From Variovorax boronicumulans (lineage in GTDB: Bacteria > Pseudomonadota > Gammaproteobacteria > Burkholderiales > Burkholderiaceae_C), in the NCBI RefSeq assembly GCF_029892485.1, contig NZ_JARXVG010000014.1, forward strand, positions 1-64,000: 64,000 nucleotides of DNA, given 5' to 3'. The position numbers were made by a program, and so were the translations under genes. Below, in pieces: positions 32,965 to 34,951 of this stretch (its first letter is position 1; every line of letters starts with the position of its first letter). Below the pieces are notes generated by a model. The model was not told the origin of the DNA, searched no databases, and was given only the letters and a program-made list of their open reading frames with translations.

Positions 32965-33537
32965 TCAACCCGGCAGCAGCACCTTGTTCACGACGTGGAT
33001 CACGCCGTTCGACTGGTACACGTTGGCGATGGTCACCGTCGCCGTGCCGCCCTTGGCATCGGTCACCAGCACGTTGCTGCCGCTCATCGTTGCCGTGAGC
33101 GTGCCGCCGCTCGCGGTCTTCAGCACGGCCTTGCCGCCGCCTGCGTTGATCGCGCTCATGAGCGCCGGGCCGTCCATCTTGCCGGGCACCACGTGGTAGG
33201 TCAGTACCTTGGTCAGCGTCGGCTTGTTCTCGGGCTTGAGCAGCGTGTCGACCGTGCCGGCGGGGAGGGCTGCGAACGCGGCGTTGGTCGGCGCGAACAC
33301 GGTGAACGGGCCCGGGCTCTTGAGCGTGCCGACCAGGTCCGCGGCCTTGACGGCGGCGACCAGCGTCGTGTGGTCCTTCGAATTCACGGCGTTGTCGACG
33401 ATGTCCTTGGTCGGGTACATCGCGGCGCCGCCGACCATCGGGTTCGACGACATGCCGGAGCTGCCGCTCATGCCCATGCCGCCCGCGCAAGCGCCGAGCA
33501 GGACCGAAACGCCGAGTGCGATCACGAGTTTTTTCAT
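32965..33537 (-). CDS. Fasciclin-domain lipoprotein
   Basis: A 190-residue secreted protein. A lipoprotein signal (MKKLVIALGVSVLLGAC, lipobox LGAC) precedes a Gly/Ser/Met-rich linker and a single FAS1 domain: TTLVAAVKAADLVGTL, PFTVFAPTNAAFAALP, LTYHVVPGKM and NGVIHVVNKVLLPG. It probably sits in the membrane facing the periplasm and mediates adhesion or surface assembly, by family analogy. The start has a strong ribosome site (AGGAGAC). It converges on the LysR gene with a 25-bp gap. Confidence 0.94.
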   Translation of the reverse strand: MKKLVIALGVSVLLGACAGGMGMSGSSGMSSNPMVGGAAMYPTKDIVDNAVNSKDHTTLVAAVKAADLVGTLKSPGPFTVFAPTNAAFAALPAGTVDTLLKPENKPTLTKVLTYHVVPGKMDGPALMSAINAGGGKAVLKTASGGTLTATMSGSNVLVTDAKGGTATVTIANVYQSNGVIHVVNKVLLPG

Positions 33538-33885
33538 GGAAGTCTCCTGGAAAGAAATGGTTGTCGAGGTTCTCTGTGGAAACCGCCAACAGCTCGGAGG
33601 CGCGATGCGCTTGAGATCAATACGGGGGGGCCATGCAACTGGATTCAGCGTGCGGCAGCGCGTCGGCTTTGCGCCACAGCCATGCGGCCGGCGCTTGCGC
33701 ATCGCGCATGTGCTCGCCAGAATCCGCCCTTCGTTTTTCAGCAACAGTTTCTTTCCACCGCGCCTGGCGACCTGCAACCTCCCGGGCGACAAACCAACTC
33801 AATGAACCGTTTCCTGAACACCTGACCCGCACACCGACCGCCCCGGCCGGATGTGCATCCATGCATCCGCCCGAGGCCCGTCGAC
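33538..33885. other. Long non-coding stretch before the terminator
   Basis: This part of a 402-bp gap holds the ribosome site and promoter of the fasciclin gene at its left end and a plus-strand region leading to the terminator at 33886. No protein-coding ORF looks convincing; a 7-codon ORF (33802-33825) has no ribosome site. A clear promoter was not recognised. If transcribed on the plus strand it would make a leader of up to roughly 300 nt for the unknown gene pair downstream. Confidence 0.4.
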
Positions 33886-33925
33886 AAAGGCCCCGCGCAG
33901 CCATTCGCCGGGGCCTTTTTGTTTT
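33886..33925 (+). terminator. Intrinsic terminator 14 nt before an unknown gene
   Basis: A 10-bp stem (AAAGGCCCCG at 33886-33895, CGGGGCCTTT at 33909-33918) with a 13-nt loop is followed by TTTTTGTTTTT. The T tract runs up to a ribosome site (GGAG, 33927-33930) for the ATG at 33940. The terminator therefore lies inside the leader of the next gene, where it could act as an attenuator. Structure seen; role inferred. Confidence 0.8.
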
Positions 33926-33939
33926 TGGAGTGTGCGCAC

Positions 33940-34167
33940 ATGAGTGCTCAACGAAAGGCCCGCGACGACGAGAAACGCCTGGGCCGGTTCTACTTTTCGG
34001 TGCCGTCCTCGGCACCTCGCAATCCCGTGGTGGCCGCGATGGCGCGCCGCGAATCCAGCCAGGGCGCCGGGCGTCACCTGCGTACGCATCGCGCGGAGCG
34101 GCGTGCGCAGAAGGTGGCGCTGCAGAAGGCTGCGCGCAGCGTCGGGCGAGGGGGCGACGATGCGTGA
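33940..34167 (+). CDS. Small basic protein of unknown function, first of a pair
   Basis: I do not recognise this 75-residue protein. It is rich in Arg and Lys with an opening MSAQRKARDDEKRLGRFYFS and the stretch SAPRNPVVAAMARRE; the tail is Gly/Arg/Asp-rich. A nucleic-acid or ribosome contact is compatible with its charge, but this is only inferred. The ribosome site GGAG lies 9 nt before the ATG and follows a terminator at once. It overlaps the next gene by 8 nt, so the two are coupled. Confidence 0.68.
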   Translation: MSAQRKARDDEKRLGRFYFSVPSSAPRNPVVAAMARRESSQGAGRHLRTHRAERRAQKVALQKAARSVGRGGDDA

Positions 34168-34951
34168 CGACATGGACAAGGTCATCGTCGAGCGGCCGCG
34201 CCGCGGCTGGCGCGTGCAAGGCGATGGGCGCGGTTTTCGCAACAGCCGCGATCGCGGCTCGCACCTGGGCATGAAGCGCGGCTACGACCATCCGAAGGGG
34301 TTCAACGAAAACCTCGCGCCGCTCAAGCGCTGGCTGCACAAGCAGGTGCACCGACCTTGGGACAAGGTGTATGCCGAACTCAACAGCGGCATCGACCGCC
34401 GCAGCACCGTGCAGGCGCACATCTTCCTGCACATCGACGACTTCGTGGAGCGGCGTGCCGAGCTGCGCGACGGCGAGGTGTGCGTTCCGCCGCATCGTTG
34501 GGGCGCACATCGCAGCGTGCCGCTGCGCGAGGCGCCGAACGTCGAACTGTTCGTGCATCCGGTCACCGGCATCCTGCTGCCCAACCGGCGACTGGCCGAG
34601 GCAAAGGCGGCACGAAAGGCCGCCCGCAAGACGTGGGCCGCTCAACGTGGCGACGAGCCCTGCGCGGTCTATCACGTGATCGACGAGACCACGCAATGGC
34701 ATCGCGTCGATGGCTGCTGGTTCGAGATCACGCTCGCGAAGTTTCCTGAGAGAGCGTGCGCGACGCAGGCGGAAGAGAAGCGCTACGACGTGCTGCGTCG
34801 CTGCCTCGTTACCCCCAGTGGCGCCGCCCAGCGTCCTGCGCCCGCCCTGCCCACCCACCGTGCGATGTACGGTCGCAGCGACGTCTACGCAATCGGCAAG
34901 CGGCAACTGGGTCGACGCGAAGTGCGGGCGCGTCTCGGCGGCGGCGCCTGA
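34160..34951 (+). CDS. Basic protein of unknown function, second of a pair
   Basis: I do not recognise this 263-residue protein. It starts MRDDMDKVIVERPRRGWRV, then has KGFNENLAPLKRWLHKQV, RPWDKVYAELNSGIDRR and QAHIFLHIDDFVE, and a later region ELFVHPVTGILLPN. It has no membrane segment or signal. RPWDKVY and NENLAPLKRWL look like a conserved module and, from memory, similar wording occurs in uncharacterised proteins of other bacteria. It is strongly basic, so nucleic-acid binding is possible. It is coupled to the small gene upstream by an 8-nt overlap and converges on the MFS gene (27-bp gap). Confidence 0.72.
   Translation: MRDDMDKVIVERPRRGWRVQGDGRGFRNSRDRGSHLGMKRGYDHPKGFNENLAPLKRWLHKQVHRPWDKVYAELNSGIDRRSTVQAHIFLHIDDFVERRAELRDGEVCVPPHRWGAHRSVPLREAPNVELFVHPVTGILLPNRRLAEAKAARKAARKTWAAQRGDEPCAVYHVIDETTQWHRVDGCWFEITLAKFPERACATQAEEKRYDVLRRCLVTPSGAAQRPAPALPTHRAMYGRSDVYAIGKRQLGRREVRARLGGGA

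What the first reader, a model, noticed from the sequence alone, without database searches (positions are those of the whole stretch)
33886..34951. Unknown coupled gene pair placed directly behind an intrinsic terminator
A strong terminator (10-bp stem, T tract) ends at 33925, and only one nucleotide later comes the ribosome site of an unrecognised 75-residue basic protein, which overlaps a 263-residue basic protein by 8 nt. A terminator inside a leader is the layout of transcriptional attenuation, so expression may need read-through, as with some stress- or antibiotic-responsive genes. The proteins lack any function I know.
Basis: partly seen in the sequence, partly recalled or inferred. Interest (0 to 1): 0.72.

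Follow-up and report, generated by a model that had tools for sequence, protein, structure and literature searches.

The report
RNA-repair gene pair behind a terminator
Two unnamed bacterial genes sit behind a strongly conserved RNA "stop signal" and, judging from the gene neighbours of their relatives, probably belong to the machinery that mends broken tRNA and ribosomal RNA, so this looks like a repair module with its own built-in switch.

Summary
In this Variovorax genome a 10-bp hairpin with a T tract (33886-33926) lies directly before the ribosome site of gene A (75 aa), which overlaps gene B (263 aa) by 8 nt. It is the only such hairpin in the 64-kb window by a strict scan. Promoter-like pair, leader, hairpin, A and B recur together in Variovorax, and the leader is the best conserved part. 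The leader also holds a helix over A's ribosome-site spacer and a 7-codon mini-ORF.
The new point is function. Neither protein matches a family in four libraries, but relatives sit beside the RNA ligase gene rtcB: rtcB-B-rtcA next to rtcR in 6 of 6 B-carrying genomes of one genus, rtcB-A-B in five genomes of another, B-rtcB-prfH on a Novosphingobium plasmid. In Variovorax, rtcB is present in 15 of 15 B-carrying genomes and 10 of 24 others.
Best reading: an accessory module of RtcB-type RNA repair that stands under its own promoter and is held down by premature termination plus ribosome-site occlusion. Signal, antitermination and the biochemistry of A and B are not shown.

The parts
33695..33723 (+). 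promoter-like pair TTGCGC - 17 nt - CAGAAT
   Evidence: same spacing in 23 of 23 Variovorax loci (22 by pattern, L010 by eye as CAAAAT); no transcript data
33730..33939 (+). probable untranslated leader (start inferred from the -10 position)
   Evidence: mini-ORF to SD part has mean pairwise identity 0.90, above A (0.85), B (0.81 and 0.62) and downstream DNA (0.39)
33802..33825 (+). 7-codon mini-ORF MNRFLNT*, directly before the structured part; weak or no Shine-Dalgarno
   Evidence: ATG, length and TGA kept in 25 of 25 rows; a 7-codon ORF ending in ACC TGA at the same place in another genus, L046; translation not shown
33828..33936 (+). closing helix P1: 33828-33834 pairs with 33930-33936, over the spacer between gene A's GGAG and ATG
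   Evidence: pair probability 0.81-0.99 in the window; CCGCACUCC/GGAGUGCGG in L009; no compensatory pair in the Variovorax alignment
33835..33883 (+). hairpin H1 inside P1
   Evidence: fold of window, L009, L023; highly conserved in sequence
33886..33926 (+). intrinsic terminator hairpin with T tract
   Evidence: hairpin by eye in 25 of 25 Variovorax rows, T tract interrupted in L025 and L034
33926..33930 (+). Shine-Dalgarno TGGAG of gene A
   Evidence: GGAG invariant in 25 of 25 rows
33940..34167 (+). gene A, 75 aa, basic; core PRNP....R..GAGxH......RR....AL
   Evidence: dN/dS median 0.18 over 20 loci; relatives directly after rtcB in 7 genomes, six of them of one genus
34160..34951 (+). gene B, 263 aa, basic; R14, P54, L55, R57, W67, E73, H91, V96, V132 invariant in 28 members, H87 in 27
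   Evidence: dN/dS median 0.36 over 20 loci; conservation; rtcB neighbourhoods

Best explanation
A and B are an accessory module of RtcB-type RNA repair (mending of cut tRNA or rRNA). In several lineages the module is part of an rtcB operon; in Variovorax it stands alone under its own promoter, away from rtcB. RNA polymerase starts about 33730, makes a roughly 210-nt structured leader and mostly stops at the terminator 33886-33926. Transcripts that run on are also poorly translated because helix P1 covers the spacer between A's Shine-Dalgarno and ATG. Expression rises when termination is bypassed and P1 is opened, most simply when a ribosome dwells on the mini-ORF stop, i.e. when translation is disturbed. 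A and B are then made in coupled fashion through the 8-nt overlap and, as strongly basic proteins, probably bind damaged RNA or the ribosome to assist RtcB. Shown: anatomy, conservation, coding selection, rtcB association of relatives. Inferred: promoter activity, termination in the cell, the signal, coupling, and the biochemical role.
For: Terminator unique in the window; promoter-like pair, leader, hairpin, A and B conserved together; leader kept when the upstream gene differs. P1 probability about 0.99 in the free leader, lost when a ribosome is modelled on the mini-ORF stop. B beside rtcB: rtcR | rtcB-B-rtcA in 6 of 6 B-carrying genomes of one genus; rtcB in the held stretch for 12 of 24 B places, plus 4 further rtcB-A-B places; gene labels of representatives checked by Pfam. 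A directly after rtcB in 7 genomes, two of them without an intact B. prfH motif after B-rtcB. tRNA arrays and SPFH genes near rtcB and B in G636 and G1402, HNH genes near B in G636, G493 and G043, recalling the antibiotic-induced rtcB/slipin/HNH/tRNA-array regulon of Anabaena (PMC10272220, passages). rtcB in 15 of 15 B-carrying and 10 of 24 other Variovorax genomes, Fisher p 1.4e-4, uncorrected for descent.
Against: In Variovorax itself A-B is not near rtcB. All 8 weak or divergent B places, phage ones included, have no rtcB match in the stretch held, nor do those of G462, G563, G746 and G043 (before A in G043 the DNA reads as the last codons of RtcB). The rtcB counts rest on few genera, and in G636 the stretch was extended after rtcB had been located 7.3 kb away. 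No antiterminator pairing predicted, and the terminator stays stable with a modelled ribosome on the mini-ORF stop; the SD is then only partly freed. No covariation in the leader, the rows being too alike. The mini-ORF has little or no SD and several of its codons change amino acid. Of the 20 best A loci, 13 have no rtcB within the roughly 3 kb held, and no A match was found in the genomes of B in G426, G1365 and G1402.
Confidence: 0.6

Rival explanations
1. Protein-controlled leader: A, B or RtcB binds the conserved leader and sets termination or translation (autoregulation as for ribosomal proteins); the mini-ORF is not translated.
For: A and B are strongly basic; leader sequence, not only structure, is highly conserved; the mini-ORF has little or no SD; no antiterminator driven by a ribosome was found.
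Against: The 24-nt ORF keeps start, stop and length in 25 of 25 rows and recurs with a different sequence in L046. No binding data.
Confidence: 0.25
2. The leader is a separate small RNA with its own terminator, and A-B is expressed by constant partial read-through, without regulation at the terminator.
For: Promoter-like pair plus structured RNA plus terminator is the plan of a small RNA gene; leader is more conserved than the genes behind it.
Against: P1 pairs the leader with A's own ribosome-site spacer; hairpin, SD and short distance to A are kept; the own genome has no second full copy of the leader, only short fragments. Note that the leaders of other strains were found through B, so copies without A-B would have been missed.
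Confidence: 0.15
3. A-B is a selfish or defence module (for example a nuclease with its partner) whose damage RtcB repairs.
For: Patchy distribution: 14 of 37 Variovorax genomes with a strong match, 6 of 398 in the phylum; phage and plasmid copies; an E...HxxxH pattern in B could be catalytic.
Against: No PADLOC, Pfam, NCBIfam or PHROG match for A or B; both proteins are basic; B sits between rtcB and rtcA in operons next to rtcR, where a toxin would be made together with its cure.
Confidence: 0.12

Closest known systems
RtcR-controlled rtcBA RNA-repair operon (PMC7790460: start of abstract and passages; PMC9650030: start of abstract; PMC12606134: abstract and outline)
   Same: B is encoded between rtcB and rtcA, beside divergent rtcR, in 6 of 6 B-carrying genomes of one genus.
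   Different: In Variovorax A-B is elsewhere, with a sigma-70-like promoter-like pair and a terminator leader; A and B are not part of the operon as described in what I saw of these papers.
[quoted passage not shown]
   Same: Highly charged proteins without detectable homologues next to rtcB-prfH are described there; a B relative precedes an rtcB-like gene and a GGQ-motif frame on a Novosphingobium plasmid.
   Different: The paper's supplementary list was not read (no supplement look-ups allowed), so identity with RFR is untested; the GGQ motif was found in 1 of 33 stretches, plus one doubtful match.
TrcR regulon of Anabaena: rtcB, slipin, HNH genes and a silent tRNA array induced by translation-targeting antibiotics (PMC10272220, passages)
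   Same: B lies with rtcB, an SPFH gene and tRNA arrays in G636 and G1402, and with an HNH gene in G636.
   Different: Different phylum and repressor; presence of A or B in Anabaena was not tested.
uORF-dependent attenuation of a DUF1127 gene under tetracycline in Sinorhizobium (PMC12218461, abstract and outline)
   Same: Leader with small ORF, premature termination before a small-protein gene.
   Different: A has no Pfam match, DUF1127 included; our mini-ORF has 7 codons and the terminator directly abuts the SD.

Membership tests
Transcription attenuator (terminator in a leader) | intrinsic terminator between a gene's own promoter and its start | tested here: met
   by sequence only: promoter-like pair 33695-33723 and terminator 33886-33926 conserved in Variovorax; promoter activity not measured
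Transcription attenuator (terminator in a leader) | alternative antiterminator structure or factor | tested here: inconclusive
   no stable antiterminator in folding of partial transcripts, with or without a modelled ribosome; a factor cannot be excluded
Transcription attenuator (terminator in a leader) | signal-dependent read-through | not testable with these tools
   needs 3'-end mapping or reporters
Leader-peptide control | translated small ORF next to or overlapping the regulatory structure | tested here: inconclusive
   24-nt ORF kept in 25 of 25 rows but weak SD and variable codons; ends 2 nt before P1
RtcB-type RNA-repair operon | genetic linkage to rtcB/rtcA/rtcR/prfH | tested here: met
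   met for relatives of A and B; in the window itself not met, rtcB is on another contig
RtcB-type RNA-repair operon | participation in RNA repair | not testable with these tools
   no biochemical data
RFR domains of RtcB-PrfH systems | sequence identity with the proteins listed by Burroughs and Aravind | not testable with these tools
Known protein families | match to Pfam, NCBIfam, PHROGs or PADLOC | tested here: not met
   no family up to E = 1 for A or B; scanning the members of A2 (16, Pfam) and A6 (6, Pfam and PHROGs) gave single-member matches no better than 0.028 in Pfam and 0.019 in PHROGs

The most novel reading that the evidence does not exclude
A-B is an undescribed ribosome- or tRNA-directed repair factor pair that works with RtcB, and its leader is a translation-state sensor: premature termination plus ribosome-site occlusion replace the RtcR activator, so that a stalled ribosome on a 7-codon ORF switches on RNA repair.
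Probability: 0.3. Interest if true: 0.78.

Novelty: new variant of a known kind. Interest (0 to 1): 0.6.

Why it matters
Rtc repair helps E. coli survive ribosome-targeting antibiotics (PMC12606134, abstract), and an RtcB2-PrfH operon protects against colicin E3 (PMC9223846, title in the listing), but accessory proteins of such systems are poorly known. Two uncharacterised families with repeated rtcB linkage give concrete candidates. The conserved leader gives an immediately testable switch that could link translation arrest to RNA repair without RtcR.

Tried and rejected
Rfam: only two sub-threshold matches, on the minus strand. Structure of B: the AlphaFold model from 18 sequences is poor (mean pLDDT 65.7, pTM 0.43); Foldseek against PDB and viral libraries gave nothing at E 0.001 or better (best viral hit 0.006, an uncharacterised phage protein with TM-score 0.25). 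No PDB sequence relative of A or B up to E 10. Viral contigs: one distant B in a 262-kb contig; three further scans found no relative. Second copy of the leader in the own genome: only fragments of 20-37 nt. Sigma-54 promoter at A-B: judged by eye not to fit, not computed. Compensatory base changes in the leader: none, uninformative because of similarity. Idea that the terminator belongs to the upstream gene: rejected, because the nearest upstream gene is divergent, and in L025 and L034 it was not found. A resemblance of A to ArfA was considered from recall only; no Pfam match supports it.

In print: six searches on RtcB neighbourhoods and RNA repair showed nothing that I could recognise as A or B in the listings and passages seen.

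Full report
WHERE. The window is contig 14 of a 6.67-Mb, 49-contig genome. All 16 named relatives found in genome contigs are Variovorax, so I call it Variovorax; the genome itself is unnamed.

CHECK OF THE OBSERVATION. A search of both strands for perfect stems of at least 9 bp with a T-rich tail finds just this site in 64 kb. The simpler scan missed it, and a clipped piece of it is not unusually stable (z -1.3). Both genes look real: over 20 of the 25 Variovorax loci median dN/dS is 0.18 for A and 0.36 for B; L005 and L014 were left out because A or B looks broken there, L006, L011 and L039 were simply not included.

CONSERVATION. B has a strong match in 14 of 37 genomes of the genus searched (own genome included; G008 and G021 have weak matches). 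In the 23 loci the leader from mini-ORF to SD is the best conserved element (mean pairwise identity 0.90), then A 0.85, the 5' part of B 0.81, the part from promoter to mini-ORF 0.77, the 3' part of B 0.62, the region further upstream 0.59, and downstream DNA 0.39. A TTGC..-17 nt-CANAAT pair ends 72-83 nt before the mini-ORF (22 loci by pattern; L010 by eye has the same spacing). The hairpin is seen by eye in 25 of 25 aligned leaders; its T tract is interrupted in L025 and L034, and L008 has a stem mismatch. Rows L020 and L039 look identical and may be the same or sister strains. In L025 and L034 no fasciclin-type gene was found upstream and the leader follows a LysR-type gene end directly, yet promoter pair and leader persist, so the leader belongs to A-B. 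All these loci were found through B, so leaders without A-B would have been missed outside the own genome.

LEADER ANATOMY. The leader folds as a closing helix P1 (33828-33834 with 33930-33936) around hairpin H1 and the terminator (z -3.8). P1 covers the spacer between GGAG and ATG of gene A. In a divergent Variovorax copy, L009, the helix becomes CCGCACUCC/GGAGUGCGG and also covers the SD (z -5.5). L023 gives z -3.4. In another genus (L046) mini-ORF, H1 and terminator recur, with the SD paired to a different segment (z -5.9). RNAalifold found 41 pairs but no compensatory change because the rows are too similar. With a ribosome modelled on the mini-ORF stop, P1 is lost and SD-spacer pairing falls in part, but the terminator stays; no antiterminator was found in partial transcripts. 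So occlusion relief by a ribosome is plausible, while the means of antitermination is open.

WHAT THE PROTEINS ARE. Neither protein matches Pfam, NCBIfam, PHROGs or PADLOC up to E = 1. B profiles find rare relatives: 8 of 299 genomes in the family, 3 of 369 in the class, 6 of 398 in the phylum, 6 of 300 in the order, own genome included each time; plus 4 plasmid records and phage Mx1. Over 28 chosen members R14, P54, L55, R57, W67, E73, H91, V96 and V132 do not vary and H87 varies once.

LINK TO RNA REPAIR. rtcB, rtcA, rtcR, RlaP, Ro60-type, SPFH and HNH query proteins were compared with 32 fetched stretches (labels of representatives checked by Pfam). The stretches hold 24 distinct B places of earlier searches; 12 have rtcB in a held stretch. 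The other 12 are 8 weak or divergent B's (L053, L054, L055, L056, L058, L059, L067, L068) and L046, L048, L051, L066. Stretch lengths differ, and one of the 12 (G636, rtcB 7.3 kb away) was seen in a stretch fetched after one search had located rtcB. By group the 12 are: six genomes of one genus, being all six with B among 197 genomes of their family, with rtcR divergent from rtcB-B-rtcA; G1365 and G1402 (one genus) with rtcB and an SPFH gene beside B; G1440 with rtcB-A-B; G493 with rtcB divergent from B about 0.66 kb away; G636 with rtcB, SPFH, HNH and nine predicted tRNAs within about 9 kb; and a Novosphingobium plasmid with B, an rtcB-like gene, a frame with the GGQHVNKT motif of PrfH (motif name from recall), then rtcR, a Ro60-type gene and a second rtcB. 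G1402 has five predicted tRNAs.

A search of the family of G1440 with a profile of A (which contained G1440's own A) then found four more rtcB-A-B places (G1539, G1540, G1543, G1549), rtcB-A followed by what looks like a B remnant in G1468, and rtcB-A without B in G1564. G1564 is of another genus; the rest, with G1440, are one genus. The family was chosen because G1440 had rtcB-A-B. Of the 20 best A loci, 7 have rtcB and 13 do not in the roughly 3 kb held; one search used E up to 1 and found matches in 60 of 64 genomes, many weak. In G043 the DNA just before A reads as the last codons of RtcB although that genome has no rtcB match, which looks like a relic of rtcB-A-B.

CO-OCCURRENCE. In 39 Variovorax genomes rtcB is present in 15 of 15 with a strong B and 10 of 24 without (Fisher p 1.4e-4). 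Two weak B matches are counted as without; G030's B looks broken; two of the 10 (G002, G024) have only partial or broken-up rtcB; some genomes are incomplete; relatedness is not corrected for.

MECHANISM. The best-supported account is an RtcB accessory module that is free-standing in Variovorax and held down by premature termination and SD-spacer occlusion. Loci inside rtcB operons whose junctions were printed lack this leader, as expected if they share the operon's control. The signal is inferred to be disturbed translation, from the mini-ORF next to P1 and because rtcB, slipin, HNH genes and a tRNA array are induced together under translation-targeting antibiotics in Anabaena (PMC10272220, passages) and the rtcBA operon responds to damaged tRNA in Salmonella (PMC7790460, title and start of abstract, passages). 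B's conserved E73/H87/H91 and the basic charge of both proteins suggest RNA binding or processing; this is inference.

KNOWN KINDS. Charged proteins of unknown kind next to RtcB-PrfH were described as RFR domains (PMC6514570, passages); whether A or B is among them I could not check. uORF-dependent attenuation before a small-protein gene is known from Sinorhizobium (PMC12218461, abstract and outline). The parts are thus of known kinds; I saw no description of these two families, their rtcB link or this leader in the searches.

Noticed in passing
   Followed up: partly
L047, L048, L049 leaders (G636, G563, G493): Three genera share a different B leader: a short ORF reading M.QCH.PMH, a hairpin ACCGTTGCGCCA...TGGCGCG.GACGGT, and instead of A a 16-18 codon ORF that overlaps B's start (read by eye).
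   Followed up: partly
L005 (G004), L014 (G030), L109 (G1468): A appears frame-broken in L005 while B is open; B appears cut short in L014; in L109 only B's first codons remain after rtcB-A.
   Followed up: no
L110-L115, L117-L123: A belongs to a wider family of small basic proteins (PRNP...GGAH...RR) that also occurs at sites without rtcB or B in the roughly 3 kb held.
   Followed up: partly
L071:6861-10997 and L102:4333-5164: Arrays of nine and five predicted tRNA genes lie between or beside rtcB, SPFH and B genes; they may be decoy or reserve tRNAs.
   Followed up: partly
G024:C16:69004-69414: One Variovorax genome without A-B has rtcB only as several small pieces, apparently a decayed gene.
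   Followed up: no
window 32965-33537 (minus): Fasciclin-type gene (named by eye) divergent from the A-B promoter; not found between the LysR-type gene and the leader in L025 and L034.
   Followed up: partly
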